The translations under genes were made by a program, and so were the position numbers. Of a stretch of 20,287 nucleotides of DNA, positions 1 through 15,301 are shown piece after piece. This DNA comes from a virus. The DNA lies in IMG/VR virus record IMGVR_UViG_3300042879_002817, positions 1 to 20,287 of that record. One strand, given 5' to 3'. The notes beneath the pieces are model-generated. The model was not told the origin of the DNA and did not search any database. It saw only the letters and a program-made list of their open reading frames with translations. Position 1 is the first letter of the stretch, and every line of letters begins with the position of its first letter.

Positions 1-858
1 ATGAGTGTTCCTTTTATGTGGGTTGATGGTAATTTGACGCTGATCCTTAACAATAAGGCTCATCAAGTTCTTCCAGATCATATTAATTATCGATTGATTC
101 TGGAGGTTCTTCCAACTGCTACCAATGATGAGTTGGCAGAGTTGGTTGACATTGAAAAGGCTGTCGCTAATTTTAGTGATGGTCTGGTGGAAGTAAAGAA
201 CGGAAAGGTTTTCTATCAGGGCGAAGAAGTTCATGGTAGTATTAGTAAGCGTATTCTGGAGTTTATGAGCAAAGGTCTGCCTTTTCAGCCCCTTGTTAAT
301 TTTCTGAATAATCTCATGGAAAATCCCAGTATGCAGAGTCAAAAGGAACTGTATGATTTCTTGGAGCATGAACTACTGCCGATTACTGAGGATGGTCATT
401 TCTTGGCCTATAAGGCAGTTCGTAGTGATTTTATGGACAAGTATCGTGGCACTTTTGATAATCACGTTGGCAAGGTTTGTGAAATGCAACGAGCAAAGGT
501 TGATGATAATCGATCTGTTGGTTGTTCGCAGGGGCTTCATGCTGGTGCATTAAACTACGTTGCTAATTATGGCAGCGTTGATTCTGGGGATAAGATTGTG
601 ATTGTTAAGATTAATCCGAAAGATGTAGTCAGTGTTCCTAGTGATTGTAATTGTGAGAAACTTCGTACCTGCCGATATGAAGTAGTCGGTGAGTATCAGG
701 GCGAACTTCTCAAGCCTCTTTATAAGAGCGACTTTAGTGAAGATGAATACTATGATGAGGATGAGGATCTTCACGACGAGTATGATGATACTTATTGGGA
801 TCAGTTTGATGAGGACGATGAGGATGAAGAAGATTATGATCCTGACCAGGATTATTGA
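1..858 (+). CDS. rIIB: rIIB-like protein with acidic C-terminal tail
   Basis: A 285-residue protein whose middle part (about residues 105-235) reads like the C-terminal domain of T4 rIIB: DFLEHELLPITEDGHFLAYK, then YRGTFDNHVGKVCEM, QGLHAGALNY and VVSVPSDCNCEKLRTCRYEV. This domain is widespread in large phages. In T4, rIIA and rIIB are membrane-associated and affect exclusion and lysis timing, but the biochemical role is unclear. The first 100 residues are less conserved. From about residue 243 to the end the chain is almost entirely Asp, Glu and Tyr, an unusual appendage. The ATG is the first base of the window, so upstream signals and any rIIA neighbour cannot be seen. Length is close to T4 rIIB (about 310 residues). 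The family call is fairly sure; the function of the tail is unknown. Confidence 0.82.
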   Translation: MSVPFMWVDGNLTLILNNKAHQVLPDHINYRLILEVLPTATNDELAELVDIEKAVANFSDGLVEVKNGKVFYQGEEVHGSISKRILEFMSKGLPFQPLVNFLNNLMENPSMQSQKELYDFLEHELLPITEDGHFLAYKAVRSDFMDKYRGTFDNHVGKVCEMQRAKVDDNRSVGCSQGLHAGALNYVANYGSVDSGDKIVIVKINPKDVVSVPSDCNCEKLRTCRYEVVGEYQGELLKPLYKSDFSEDEYYDEDEDLHDEYDDTYWDQFDEDDEDEEDYDPDQDY

Positions 859-1045: not shown

Positions 1046-2185
1046 ATGTTTAGCGATAAGTTGGCTTTTAATCCGTTTGATAAGAACAATAATGTTCATG
1101 CTGGTGGAAATGCACAGAATCGTCACAGATTTTTGAGTTCATTTAATCAGAGTCATATCTTTGTTTACAATGGTAATCCACGCAAGAAAATTAGCACTAT
1201 GAGTCATGCTTCTGGTGATGATGGTCTTGTAGAGGCGATTGCTGCAAACATAAAGAACCATTCAGATGTTTACTTCTACGTTAATGGAGGGCGTAAACTT
1301 TATGCTATCAAGCAGTTTACTTGCTGTTTCTGTGATATGGATGCTGGTCGTGATAATGACGGCAAGTATTTTAAGCCTAGCATTGTGATGACAAAGAAGA
1401 AGGCTTTCCTTAAAAAGATCAACGAATTTCCTGTTAAGCCTAGCTGGGTAGTAGATACTCGTAATGGCTATCAGTGCTACTGGATTTTTGATGATGCTTC
1501 TCGTAAGATTGTGGGCCATAACAAGACTTTTTGGAATGGTCTTCAGAAAAAGCTTGTAAATTACTTTGATGGTGATCCAAGAGCGATCAAACCTAACCAG
1601 ATTTATCGTGTTCCTTATACTTGGTGGCGTAAGGAGTGGGAAAAGAAGGCTCCATACTTTACCAGTTTGCTTCCCGGTTCAACTGGTCTGCCAATTAATG
1701 TTGCTGACTTAAAGACTGCTCTAACGGGCCAGCCTGCTACCCTTCAGATTATTCCTGAGAAGTGTAGTGATGAATGGTATAAGGGATATGCACAGGCTTA
1801 TAAGAAGTCTGACGTTACAGGAGTACCAGTATCAGTAAATGTTGCTACTGATATTCTAAACCAGATGAGAAATGAGGAATCATATAGTACAAAAACAATT
1901 TATGGGTATGAACGTGCCTATGGAGATGCTATGCTTGCCGTACCTAGTTATGGAGATTTGGACGGGGACGTTGATGGTGATGATACAGACACCCTTGAAC
2001 CGCTCTCTTTGGGTGTGGCTGGCAAGGATTTAGAACTGGATGGTCCCCAGACCAAGCTTTTAAAGACGGTCGTTGAGTTCCTTAATCAAGTATCGACTCC
2101 GCTTTACTTTAGCAATAATCGATTTCTTAGTAGTGCAGCAAAGGACTTGGCTAATCAACTTAGTGATAAATTTTGTATCGGATAA
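1046..2185 (+). CDS. RepB/AEP-type primase
   Basis: A 379-residue protein resembling the RepB_primase group of archaeo-eukaryotic primases, which make primers for DNA replication. The metal-binding motif I appears as FCDMDAG (Asp97, Asp99). Motif II is PSWVVDTRNGYQCYW (132-146), close to the family pattern of a threonine/serine, glycine and aromatic run before a Tyr-Trp. The last motif region is GDPRAIKPNQIYRVPYT (176-192) followed by a basic WWRK. From about residue 285 the chain turns acidic and Asp/Gly-rich and I recognise no helicase or other domain, so it looks like a stand-alone primase. Start is supported by AAGGAAG four bases before the ATG. A following gene begins after a 51-base gap with its own strong ribosome site. 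The call is by motif reading only. Confidence 0.68.
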   Translation: MFSDKLAFNPFDKNNNVHAGGNAQNRHRFLSSFNQSHIFVYNGNPRKKISTMSHASGDDGLVEAIAANIKNHSDVYFYVNGGRKLYAIKQFTCCFCDMDAGRDNDGKYFKPSIVMTKKKAFLKKINEFPVKPSWVVDTRNGYQCYWIFDDASRKIVGHNKTFWNGLQKKLVNYFDGDPRAIKPNQIYRVPYTWWRKEWEKKAPYFTSLLPGSTGLPINVADLKTALTGQPATLQIIPEKCSDEWYKGYAQAYKKSDVTGVPVSVNVATDILNQMRNEESYSTKTIYGYERAYGDAMLAVPSYGDLDGDVDGDDTDTLEPLSLGVAGKDLELDGPQTKLLKTVVEFLNQVSTPLYFSNNRFLSSAAKDLANQLSDKFCIG

Positions 2186-2664: not shown

Positions 2665-3093
2665 ATGAAAAAAGAATGGTATGATATAACTAATGTAGAT
2701 TTATTTGTTGAAGCTAGCAGAGTTTTGGTTTATGATGCTTTTGGAGAAAAAGATCAAAAAGAAGATATAAAAGATATCAAAATGAGCTTAGATGAATTAG
2801 ACGATGATGAAAAAGAAGAAATTAATAGGTGCTTACCTCAACAAGAATGTTTAGCAATAGCCGAGCAACATCTTAAGAAATATAAAAACAAAAAGAACCA
2901 AATTCTATATCGTATTTCAGATAAGGCATATATGGCATTTATAGAATCATTAAACTCAAGATTAGTTAGTAATATGCTTCATAAATTATCTATGGAGGGA
3001 TTCTTGGAAAGCGCTTTTGATAGTAATTTAAATGACTTTGTATTTTGGGTTAAAGAAGATGAAGAAAACGAAAACACTGATAAAAAATCTTAA
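2665..3093 (+). CDS. Unrecognised phage protein
   Basis: A 142-residue, charged, largely helical-looking protein without a family I recognise. Residues 34-60 are a run of Lys/Glu/Asp. The last part ends in FVFWVKEDEENENTDKKS, an acidic tail. No Cys, metal motif or membrane segment stands out. It lies eight bases after the previous gene and overlaps the next gene (start at 3059) by 35 bases, which supports co-transcription and translational coupling. No clear Shine-Dalgarno precedes its ATG, which sits in an AT-rich run like several other starts in this genome. It is placed directly upstream of the putative RuvA-like and RuvB genes and could work with them, but this is only positional. Confidence 0.72.
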   Translation: MKKEWYDITNVDLFVEASRVLVYDAFGEKDQKEDIKDIKMSLDELDDDEKEEINRCLPQQECLAIAEQHLKKYKNKKNQILYRISDKAYMAFIESLNSRLVSNMLHKLSMEGFLESAFDSNLNDFVFWVKEDEENENTDKKS

Positions 3094-3460
3094 ACCAGAT
3101 GATTATGATATTAGCTTTAAATATTCTTGTCCAGAATGTCGTAACGATCATTGGATATTCTTAAGAGAAGCTAAAGTTAAAAACTTTAAGATCGTATGTG
3201 AATGCGGTAGTATTATTGTTCCAAAAAGGATACGTACTATCAATATAGAATTCTTATCGGAAGAATCAAAACCAGTAGTCAAGGAAAACTCCGTGCCACT
3301 TGACATACTAGACGAGTGTGTTAAAATACTCTCTGGGTACGGGTATACATCTGAGGAAAGTAGTCAAATGATTAAAGAGTCATTTGAATTAACTAATTCA
3401 ACAGATATTAAAAATCTTATTGCTTGCTCACTTACACATTTTGGAGATAAATATGTCTAA
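3059..3460 (+). CDS. Zinc-ribbon protein with RuvA domain III-like C-terminus
   Basis: A 133-residue protein with two parts. The N-terminal half has a four-Cys zinc ribbon: CPEC (Cys24, Cys27) and CECG (Cys47, Cys49). The C-terminal part, about 80-126, reads like domain III of RuvA, the small helical module that binds RuvB: LDILDECVKILSGYGY, then EESSQMI and IKNLIACSL, with the Gly-Tyr, the EAS-like turn and the final Leu-Ile helix in the expected order. RuvA domains I and II, which hold the Holliday junction, are missing. The next gene is a complete RuvB and overlaps this one by eight bases. I infer a RuvB adaptor that uses the zinc ribbon for DNA or protein contact. An in-frame upstream ATG (3032) would lengthen the overlap with the previous gene; 3059 is preferred. 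Confidence 0.62.
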   Translation: MKKTKTLIKNLKPDDYDISFKYSCPECRNDHWIFLREAKVKNFKIVCECGSIIVPKRIRTINIEFLSEESKPVVKENSVPLDILDECVKILSGYGYTSEESSQMIKESFELTNSTDIKNLIACSLTHFGDKYV

Positions 3461-4352
3461 CGGTATGAGACCATCTTGTTTTAATGATATTATTGGACAG
3501 GAATCGGTTGTTAATCGTTTGAAAATCATGGTTGAGGGCTGTAAAAGCTCTGGTCAGGTTATGCCCCATACTTTAATAGACGGACCTCCGGGTCTTGGTA
3601 AAACAACTATTGCTACATCAATAGCAAATGAAATGGGTGTTAATATTTACACTGTCAATGCTGCAACTGTTCGCAGTCCAAAAAATATTATTCCTTATCT
3701 AATGGGTATTGATCCTAGATCAGTTCTATTTATTGATGAAATCCATCGTCTACCAAAGCTTGTTGAAGAATTTTTATATCCTGTTATGGAAGACTATAGG
3801 CTTGACATTTTGATTGAGAACAAACCGGAGTCGATTGATCTTCCAGTATTCACACTTATTGGTGCGACAACGAGCGGAGGTAGTCTTAGTCAGCCATTCT
3901 ATGATCGATTTACAATCAAGGAGCATTTGACTTTTTATAGTCCAGATGAACTAGCTAAACTTGCAGGATCGAATGCTGATAAGCTAAGTTTAAATCTTTC
4001 GGATGAAGATATGATAGAGATTGCTAAGAGAAGCAAGGGAACTCCTAGGATTCTTAATGCTAGATTGCAGTGGTATAAGCACTATGTTGCTTTCCATAAG
4101 GATACAAATATTCCTATTAATGAAATTTTTAAGAGTCAGGGGATAGATGAAAATGGATTTGATTGTAATGATCTTAGTTATATTAATGTTCTTAAGAAGA
4201 ATATCGGAAACCCTCTAGGGTTAAAAAGTATATCTAGTATGACCGGTATTGCTATGGAGACAATTGAAAATAGCATCGAACCATATATGATCAGAATGGG
4301 ATATGTTGCAAGAACACAGAAGGGCAGAGTGTTAGGCCGCATCAAAACATGA
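3453..4352 (+). CDS. ruvB: RuvB-like Holliday junction branch migration ATPase
   Basis: A 299-residue AAA+ protein with all RuvB landmarks. There is Walker A GPPGLGKTT (44-52), Walker B LFIDEIHR (92-99), sensor 1 GATT (137-140), the arginine-finger region FYDRF (Arg152) and sensor 2 GTPRILNARL (196-205). The C-terminal winged helix (about 233-299) matches RuvB with GNPLGLKSISS, TIENSIEPYMIRMGYV and RTQKGRVLG. It is slightly shorter than bacterial RuvB (about 330-350), mainly at the N-terminus. The ATG at 3453 has GGAG six bases upstream; a longer reading frame exists but lies inside the previous gene. RuvB drives branch migration of Holliday junctions together with RuvA; here the neighbouring zinc-ribbon protein may supply the RuvA contact. 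The gene's last 21 bases overlap the convergent minus-strand gene. Confidence 0.92.
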   Translation: MSNGMRPSCFNDIIGQESVVNRLKIMVEGCKSSGQVMPHTLIDGPPGLGKTTIATSIANEMGVNIYTVNAATVRSPKNIIPYLMGIDPRSVLFIDEIHRLPKLVEEFLYPVMEDYRLDILIENKPESIDLPVFTLIGATTSGGSLSQPFYDRFTIKEHLTFYSPDELAKLAGSNADKLSLNLSDEDMIEIAKRSKGTPRILNARLQWYKHYVAFHKDTNIPINEIFKSQGIDENGFDCNDLSYINVLKKNIGNPLGLKSISSMTGIAMETIENSIEPYMIRMGYVARTQKGRVLGRIKT

Positions 4353-5356: not shown

Positions 5357-6361
5357 ATGGCAAAAGGATTAGATGTAGGCACATCGTTTATTGTATTATC
5401 TCAGCAATCAGGAAAAAGTATTACATATACTGATTTTAGAGATGCGTTTTATATTATTAAACCATCCACTCCTGTAGCTAATAAGATGATAGAAAAAGGA
5501 TTAAAAGGCAAAGTTTTTATTAAAGATAGTGACGGATCTTTTGTTCTTCTAGGTAAAGATGCTATAGAAAAAGCCATAGAAAGAAATGAGACTGCTCGTA
5601 GGCCAATGTATAGAGGCGTAGTGTCTGTTAAAGAAAAAGACGCGAAAAGAATATTGGCATATATTTTAAAAGAAGTTGCCGGTCAAGCATCTGAACCAAA
5701 TGAAAAACTGATTTTTTGTATACCAGCACAACCAGTTGATCAAGAAGATGATGATTTTGATGTTGGATATCATGAAGATGTAGTAAAGACTATACTAGCA
5801 GAATGTGGATATGTGGCTAAATCAATTAATGAAGCTGAAGCATTATGTTATGCTGAACTAGAAAAAGATGATTACACAGGTATCGGGGTAAGTTGCGGTG
5901 CTGGTATGACAAACGTGTGCGTTATGTTAAATGGTGAACCAACAGTAGTCTTTAGCACAACCAAGTCAGGCGACTGGGTTGATCGTATGGCTTCTGTAGC
6001 GACCGGAGAGCCGGATAGTGTAATTCAGGTAGAGAAGGAAGCCGGTGGTTTTAAAGTAGGTGAACCAAACGAAAATCCTGTTTTGGCTGCTGTGTCAGCA
6101 TATTATGAGCGACTTATAGACTATACAGCAAAACAATTATCTTTTGCTTTATCTGATCATAAAGCTCTGCCAAAGTTTAAGCATCCTATTAAAATAGTTG
6201 TAGCTGGTGGAACATCTAAAGCAGAAGGTTATGTGGATCATTTAAAATTAAAACTAGTAGAGCATAATTTTCCATTAGAAATTTCGGAAGTAGTACATGC
6301 GTCAGACCCTCTGCATTCTGTAGCAAAAGGTTGCCTTATAGCAGCATCTATACTGGATTAA
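5357..6361 (+). CDS. Actin/Hsp70-fold ATPase (ParM/MreB-like)
   Basis: A 334-residue protein of the actin-like ATPase superfamily. The first phosphate loop is GLDVGTS (4-10). The second is GVSCGAGMTNV (177-187), where the usual Asp of the D-x-G-G-G pattern is replaced by Ser. The adenosine loop is VVAGGTSKAEG (281-291). Between them, INEAEALCYAE (157-167) resembles the helix that precedes phosphate loop 2 in MreB, ParM and Hsp70. Length fits MreB/ParM rather than Hsp70, and no substrate-binding domain follows. Likely roles are filament formation for phage DNA or particle positioning, but a non-polymerising chaperone-like role is possible. The membrane protein gene is directly upstream and an HNH nuclease gene starts one base after the stop, so all may form one operon. 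Confidence 0.8.
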   Translation: MAKGLDVGTSFIVLSQQSGKSITYTDFRDAFYIIKPSTPVANKMIEKGLKGKVFIKDSDGSFVLLGKDAIEKAIERNETARRPMYRGVVSVKEKDAKRILAYILKEVAGQASEPNEKLIFCIPAQPVDQEDDDFDVGYHEDVVKTILAECGYVAKSINEAEALCYAELEKDDYTGIGVSCGAGMTNVCVMLNGEPTVVFSTTKSGDWVDRMASVATGEPDSVIQVEKEAGGFKVGEPNENPVLAAVSAYYERLIDYTAKQLSFALSDHKALPKFKHPIKIVVAGGTSKAEGYVDHLKLKLVEHNFPLEISEVVHASDPLHSVAKGCLIAASILD

Positions 6362-14722: not shown

Positions 14723-15301
14723 ATGGACTTATATTATGAAACTTTGGATACATATACGCTTTTAGCTAAGAAAGTTATTTCGAAATTTTCTTCATCTTTT
14801 TATAGTGGATTGCGTAATGAACTACTAAATAATGAGGAAGCAATATCAGAAATAGCAGAAGCATTAATGATAGCGGACTGGAGATGGGATGCCGACCGTA
14901 AGGGGCATAACGGTCAGTCAAAAACAAGATATTCTTATCGTAATCAATGTGGATTATGGGCCATGAAAACATATGTGAGTAAAAAATATAAAAAGAAAAA
15001 TAGGCAAATTTCTATTGATCATGCCGCTGGCGAAGATAAGAGTTATTTACACAATGTGCCGGATTATAATTCTGATCCTTCAGAAATAGTCTCAGAAAAA
15101 GAAGAAAAAGATTTACTACAAAAAAATATTTATGATTTATTAAATTCAGATATTTTAACCAGTAAACAAAAAGATCAAATACATCAATATTATTTTGAAG
15201 ATAAAACATTATTAGAAATTGGCAAACAATATGGTGTGACAAGAGAAGCTATTAGACAAAATATTCAAAAGGGTCTTACGAGTATTAGAAATTACGCATA
15301 A
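14723..15301 (+). CDS. Phage sigma factor of the sigma-70 family
   Basis: A 192-residue protein with a clear sigma region 4 helix-turn-helix near the end: LLEIGKQYGVTREAIRQNIQ (about 164-183). The middle part, with WRWDADRKGHNGQSKTRYSY and GLWAMKTYV, is the equivalent of region 2, with aromatic and basic residues that could melt and hold the -10. Region 1 and a full region 3 are absent. The size is close to T4 gp55 and other small phage sigma factors, which direct late transcription. AAGGA-type sequence supports the start. Its location among the head and structural genes fits a late-gene regulator; the promoters it recognises may be the GGTGTA-containing sites, but that is inference. Confidence 0.8.
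   Translation: MDLYYETLDTYTLLAKKVISKFSSSFYSGLRNELLNNEEAISEIAEALMIADWRWDADRKGHNGQSKTRYSYRNQCGLWAMKTYVSKKYKKKNRQISIDHAAGEDKSYLHNVPDYNSDPSEIVSEKEEKDLLQKNIYDLLNSDILTSKQKDQIHQYYFEDKTLLEIGKQYGVTREAIRQNIQKGLTSIRNYA

What the first reader, a model, noticed from the sequence alone, without database searches (positions are those of the whole stretch)
3059..4352. RuvB paired with a zinc-ribbon protein carrying only a RuvA domain III-like module
A complete RuvB motor gene (3453-4352) overlaps an upstream gene of 133 residues. That protein has a CPEC/CECG zinc ribbon and then a 45-residue C-terminus that follows RuvA domain III, the part that contacts RuvB. The junction-holding domains I and II of RuvA are gone. 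Established knowledge: in bacteria RuvB needs RuvA to load on Holliday junctions. Inference: the phage uses a minimal adaptor that brings RuvB to another DNA structure or protein, for instance replication forks, packaging or late-transcription DNA. This would be a rewired branch-migration system.
Basis: partly seen in the sequence, partly recalled or inferred. Interest (0 to 1): 0.78.

Follow-up and report, generated by a model that had tools for sequence, protein, structure and literature searches.

The report
Phage RuvB motor with minimal RuvA adaptor
A group of large uncultivated phages carries its own version of the bacterial DNA-junction motor RuvB, and most replace the usual RuvA partner with a small zinc-binding protein that keeps only RuvA's motor-docking tip, which suggests a rebuilt way of steering this motor to DNA.

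Summary
Window 3059-3457 encodes a 133-residue protein: a CxxC...CxC zinc ribbon, a flexible linker, and a C-terminal three-helix bundle. That bundle matches RuvA domain III by three routes: profile search of the whole PDB (best hit RuvA domain III, E=3.5e-4), profile-profile alignment (91%, E=1e-6; controls 0.2% or less), and predicted structure (the 13 best PDB entries are all RuvA, Z 6.1-7.7). It overlaps a complete RuvB gene (3453-4349).

The pair is tightly linked. All 55 loci found by searching with the adaptor alone have ruvB directly downstream, and 70 of 80 relatives of the RuvB have the adaptor. In sixteen large contigs, three of them complete circular genomes of 229-238 kb, I found no RuvA_N, RuvC, beta clamp or other clamp-loader-like ATPase; thirteen encode endonuclease VII. 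Searches of papers, PHROGs and phage records turned up no description of the pair.

Most likely it is a phage branch-migration or fork-remodelling motor whose basic zinc ribbon stands in for RuvA's DNA-binding core. The zinc ribbon's target is not shown. The adaptor is missing in three separate RuvB lineages, so it is not strictly required. I rate it a new variant of a known kind.

The parts
3059..3457 (+). Adaptor gene (133 aa): basic N-terminus and zinc ribbon (C24, C27, C47, C49), flexible linker about residues 62-79, RuvA domain III-like three-helix bundle residues 80-131
3287..3451 (+). RuvA domain III-like module (residues 77-131); L91 and Y94 occupy the places of RuvA L167 and L170, G95 invariant
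   Evidence: RuvA L167A/L170A phenotype from PMC2628435
3128..3205 (+). Zinc-ribbon cysteines C24-x2-C27 ... C47-x-C49, invariant in 48 sequences
3453..4349 (+). RuvB (299 aa): AAA+ large and small domains and winged helix; Walker A/B, MED, DRF arginine finger and RTxxGR pore motif kept; presensor-1 beta-hairpin four residues shorter than in P. aeruginosa RuvB
2665..3090 (+). Upstream partner gene (142 aa), present in 80 of 80 relatives upstream of ruvB (of the adaptor where there is one); fold predicted (pLDDT 85) but no known relative
1046..2182 (+). Primase-like protein (weak match to phage primase families) in the same gene cluster

Best explanation
This is a phage-encoded RuvB-type branch-migration or fork-remodelling motor with a stripped-down RuvA substitute. 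[quoted passage not shown] The basic zinc ribbon, joined by a flexible linker of 14-63 residues, takes the place of RuvA domains I/II and brings the motor to DNA or to a DNA-bound partner. Branched recombination/replication intermediates made by the phage RecA and replisome would then be moved by RuvB and cut by the phage endonuclease VII. Shown: gene linkage, domain identities, conservation of motor and contact residues, no detectable RuvA domain I or RuvC. Inferred: physical docking, DNA binding by the zinc ribbon, branched DNA as substrate, cooperation with endonuclease VII.
For: Domain III identity by profile, profile-profile and structure. In all 55 of 55 loci found with the adaptor alone, ruvB starts -8 to +16 nt from the adaptor's end. 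Positions of RuvA L167 and L170, whose loss abolishes RuvB activity in vivo (PMC2628435), are held as L91 (L 44, M 4) and Y94 (Y 39, L 7, F 2), with G95 48 of 48. RuvB keeps Walker A/B, arginine finger and pore arginines (R314 and R319 of P. aeruginosa kept, R317 K or R; PMC10071043). RuvA domain III is known both as anchor and as ATPase-activating element (PMC9477746). Zinc-ribbon module mean net charge +4.9 against -2.2 for domain III. The genomes carry RecA, SSB, Pol III alpha, DnaB-like helicase and endonuclease VII in 13 of 16, but no RuvA_N, RuvC or beta clamp was found.
Against: The adaptor is missing in three lineages that keep RuvB, so RuvB can do something without it. The RuvB hairpin that should receive domain III is four residues shorter than in P. 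aeruginosa RuvB, and looks the same in adaptor-less phages. No complex was modelled. The zinc ribbon has no identifiable close relative, so its DNA binding rests on charge and type of fold only. Net charge was not compared with a background set.
Confidence: 0.6

Rival explanations
1. The phage RuvB works chiefly with the host's RuvA, which supplies the junction-binding core; the small adaptor is an optional activator or substrate selector that competes with or supplements host RuvA domain III.
For: Adaptor missing in three branches while RuvB stays; RuvA and RuvB of different bacteria can work together (PMC9477746); host RuvA is widespread in bacteria, for example in 41 of 41 sampled genomes of the phylum of the MAG that holds one copy.
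Against: Phage RuvB is only about 40% identical to bacterial RuvB and its RuvA-binding hairpin is four residues shorter; the host is unknown.
Confidence: 0.2
2. The adaptor is a decoy: a free domain III that occupies the hairpin of the host RuvB and blocks or diverts the host RuvABC system.
For: A lone domain III would be expected to compete with RuvA for RuvB (inference from PMC9477746).
Against: It is fused to the zinc ribbon in all 48 family members and next to the phage's own ruvB in 55 of 55 loci, which fits a partner of phage RuvB better than a free inhibitor.
Confidence: 0.07
3. RuvB has been recruited to a non-recombination role: clamp loading, DNA packaging or late transcription.
For: In all 16 contigs RuvB is the only match to the phage clamp-loader family phrog_168; a sigma-region-4 protein lies in the window.
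Against: No T4-type or bacterial sliding clamp found; the winged helix and pore arginines of a dsDNA translocase are kept, and it scores far better as RuvB (2.3e-49) than as clamp loader (9e-19).
Confidence: 0.1
4. The C-terminal bundle only resembles RuvA domain III (UBA-like three-helix folds are common), and its place beside ruvB is unrelated to docking.
For: UBA-like domains follow at Z 4-5 in the same structure list; sequence identity to RuvA is only 12-26%.
Against: RuvA comes first in sequence-profile and structure searches of the PDB and in a profile-profile test against controls, and the gene sits next to ruvB in every locus found with it.
Confidence: 0.03

Closest known systems
Bacterial RuvAB branch-migration complex (RuvA domains I-III with RuvB)
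   Same: RuvB with all three domains and catalytic motifs; a domain III-like bundle on a flexible linker, encoded directly next to ruvB
   Different: Domains I/II (tetrameric junction holder) replaced by a small zinc ribbon; RuvB hairpin four residues shorter; no RuvC found; only about 40% identity to bacterial RuvB
Jumbo phage Holliday-junction systems (RuvC-like, RusA-like or endonuclease VII resolvases; PMC7824862)
   Same: Large phage genomes with a resolvase; most members here carry an endonuclease VII-like gene
   Different: [quoted passage not shown] here a RuvB is present, mostly with an adaptor
T4 gp44/62 clamp loader
   Same: AAA+ ATPase family, weaker profile match
   Different: Domain set, winged helix and partner are those of RuvB; no T4-type clamp found

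Membership tests
RuvB | RuvB P-loop, RuvB lid and RuvB winged-helix domains in one protein | tested here: met
   PF05496 2.3e-49, PF17864 3.3e-9, PF05491 1.2e-17, all above cut-off; best PDB hits all RuvB
RuvB | Walker A/B, arginine finger, pore arginines | tested here: met
   GPPGLGKTT, DEIHR, DRF, RTxxGR conserved in the alignment
RuvB | Presensor-1 beta-hairpin that receives RuvA domain III | tested here: inconclusive
   Present but 14 instead of 18 residues between the aligned leucines (extent L135-L152 from PMC2628435)
RuvB | ATP-driven branch migration | not testable with these tools
   needs biochemistry
RuvA (full protein) | N-terminal OB-fold domain I (PF01330) | tested here: not met
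   absent from the protein and not found in 16 of 16 large contigs, control positive in 10 bacterial genomes
RuvA (full protein) | HhH domain II | tested here: not met
   the profile aligns only with RuvA 151-198, none of domain II, and the rest of the 133 residues is zinc ribbon and linker
RuvA (full protein) | tetramer that holds a Holliday junction | not testable with these tools
   oligomeric state and DNA binding need experiments
RuvA domain III | three-helix bundle with RuvA_C sequence signature | tested here: met
   E-values of single sequences against RuvA_C are weak (best 0.0016)
RuvA domain III | binds RuvB and stimulates its ATPase | not testable with these tools
   contact positions L167/L170 are held as L/M and Y/L/F

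The most novel reading that the evidence does not exclude
A minimal two-part junction motor: a RuvB ring tethered through a lone RuvA domain III to a zinc ribbon that recognises a DNA structure or replisome protein other than a Holliday junction held by RuvA, so that RuvB works without any RuvA tetramer and is aimed at phage replication forks.
Probability: 0.35. Interest if true: 0.8.

Novelty: new variant of a known kind. Interest (0 to 1): 0.62.

Why it matters
RuvB is described as depending on the RuvA tetramer to load on junctions. A natural system that keeps only the docking module and swaps the DNA-recognition part would show that targeting and driving are separable, and would give a small test of what domain III alone does to the motor. 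It also gives a large group of uncultivated phages a RuvB motor of a kind that a survey of 224 jumbo phages did not report.

Tried and rejected
Single-sequence Pfam and PHROGs searches of the adaptor found nothing, and no PHROG matches the family convincingly. tblastn of the adaptor and of the upstream gene against 50,697 phage records found no match; the RuvB hits there are at most about 41% identical. The two I looked at with annotation (L215, L216) sit beside a full ruvA in bacterial-type operons and are probably host DNA or prophage edges. Searching with the full adaptor alignment failed for lack of conserved stretches; a closer subset worked. Clamp-loader idea: no sliding clamp found. A domain III-like hit in the 595-kb phage LR756511 (E 0.003) lies in a 279-residue protein away from any RuvB and is taken as chance. 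Hidden domain III elsewhere in adaptor-less genomes: none convincing, best E 0.17. Upstream gene: model pLDDT 85 but best PDB Z 4.1 and no sequence relative; left unassigned. Foldseek on its own gave no E below 0.001 for the adaptor, though RuvA fills its top four places; the viral library gave no informative match. I did not try to fold an artificial adaptor-RuvB fusion.

Full report
The window and its relatives. The window is a 20,287-base virus record. A search of the viral collection with RuvB kept the best 80 of 321 relatives at 69-100% identity. The longest contigs are 229-238 kb; three of those fetched whole (G006, G013, G008) begin and end with the same 81-123 bases and are therefore taken as complete circular maps. 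G013, read in most detail, encodes a C-family DNA polymerase (Pol III alpha: PHP, polymerase and finger domains, split over two reading frames), a DnaB-like helicase, RecA, SSB, a ribonucleotide reductase and structural genes; most of the proteins scanned have relatives in at least two of G006, G008 and G010. rIIB lies upstream of the cluster in the window and relatives.

Is the RuvA domain III match real? A single sequence gives nothing, so I built a family of 48 proteins from the gene directly upstream of ruvB. The profile, run against all PDB sequences, returned RuvA domain III of T. thermophilus first (1ixs_A, E 3.5e-4; 1ixr_A 1.9e-3), with further RuvA chains below at E 0.1-0.2. RuvA_C is the Pfam family hit by most members, 13 of 48. 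Profile-profile alignment with a set of 16 bacterial RuvA sequences gives 91.1% and E 1.1e-6 over residues 80-129, against 0.2% or less for column-shuffled and unrelated controls. The AlphaFold2 model (pLDDT 89) has three helices at 81-93, 98-112 and 117-131; Foldseek ranks M. tuberculosis RuvA in its first four places with probability 0.99 but E 0.26-0.51, and the 13 best VIA-aligned entries are all RuvA, Z 6.1-7.7. Z values of this size can be met by unrelated helical folds, so the structure alone would not be proof; it is the agreement of the routes plus the gene's position beside ruvB that convinces.

Anatomy. The first 62 residues hold invariant C24, C27, C47 and C49 (48 of 48), W32 (47 of 48) and a mean net charge of +4.9; the linker is 14-63 residues; the bundle is acidic (-2.2). 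In E. coli RuvA the alanine changes L167A and L170A in the first helix of domain III abolish RuvB activity in vivo without affecting junction binding (PMC2628435). The aligned adaptor positions, by my mapping, are L91 (L or M in 48 of 48) and Y94 (Y, L or F in 48 of 48), followed by an invariant glycine. On the RuvB side the catalytic and pore motifs are kept, but the presensor-1 hairpin that receives domain III has 14 rather than 18 residues between the aligned leucines.

Linkage. Of 80 RuvB loci, 70 have the adaptor directly upstream and 10 do not (L007, L008, L011, L018, L022, L023, L045, L054, L055, L074). Four of these lie on larger contigs (G002, G008, G010, G015), and no adaptor was found elsewhere there; a domain-III-only profile found none in G008 and G010 either. 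On a RuvB tree the ten fall in three places, so the adaptor was probably lost three times, or a replacement is missed (FastTree, nine bacterial outgroup sequences only). The reverse search, with the adaptor and not RuvB, found 54 viral loci and one contig of a Chitinophagia MAG; all 55 have ruvB at -8 to +16 nt and the upstream gene before it. Many of these 54 overlap the first set, so the two counts are not independent samples. The MAG also has its own RuvB on another contig, so that contig is most likely phage DNA binned with a possible host. The upstream gene is in 80 of 80 RuvB loci, which makes it the more constant partner of RuvB; its fold is unassigned.

What the genomes lack and have. 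Across 16 contigs: RuvA_N none, RuvC none, beta clamp none, T4 clamp none above cut-off, and RuvB the only match to the clamp-loader family. Most of these contigs are of unknown completeness, so absence is firmer for the three circular ones. Endonuclease VII-like genes occur in 13 of 16. A gene with weak but repeated matches to phage primases lies upstream in the same cluster. This company points to recombination and replication.

Mechanism. In the bacterial complex domain III anchors RuvB to RuvA and acts as an ATPase-activating wedge (PMC9477746), and is thought to detach and reattach as the ring turns (PMC10272136). I infer that the adaptor does the same for the phage ring and that the zinc ribbon replaces the junction-holding core. 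What the ribbon binds is open. The strongest objection is the repeated absence of the adaptor with the hairpin unchanged, which allows host RuvA, or the constant upstream gene, to be the partner in some phages.

Novelty. [quoted passage not shown] No PHROG matches the adaptor convincingly, and tblastn of the window's adaptor and upstream gene found no phage record. RuvB itself is a member of a known family and domain III is a known module; the combination and the missing RuvA core are new as far as these sources show. I therefore call it a new variant of a known kind.

Noticed in passing
window 5357-6358: Actin-like protein of the Volactin family (PF25216, E 5.3e-64), downstream of ruvB; among phage records only two huge uncultivated phages (485 and 595 kb) have a relative, 33-35% identical. 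Volactin is known from haloarchaea (own knowledge).
   Followed up: partly
window 2665-3090: Gene directly upstream, present in 80 of 80 RuvB relatives with nine invariant residues, predicted fold without a convincing PDB match; a more constant RuvB neighbour than the adaptor.
   Followed up: partly
window 1046-2182: Protein conserved at 53-80% identity with weak matches to phage primase families; motifs FCDMDAG and DTRNGYQCYW recall archaeo-eukaryotic-type primases (recollection, not tested).
   Followed up: partly
L136:1507-3369 and L136:4294-5910 (G013): Pol III alpha split over two reading frames with another ORF (3602-4288) between them, possibly a mobile insertion in the polymerase gene.
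   Followed up: no
window 1-855: RIIB-like protein (phrog_609, E 1.6e-71).
   Followed up: no
window 14723-15298: Sigma-70 region 4 protein (E 7.4e-11).
   Followed up: no
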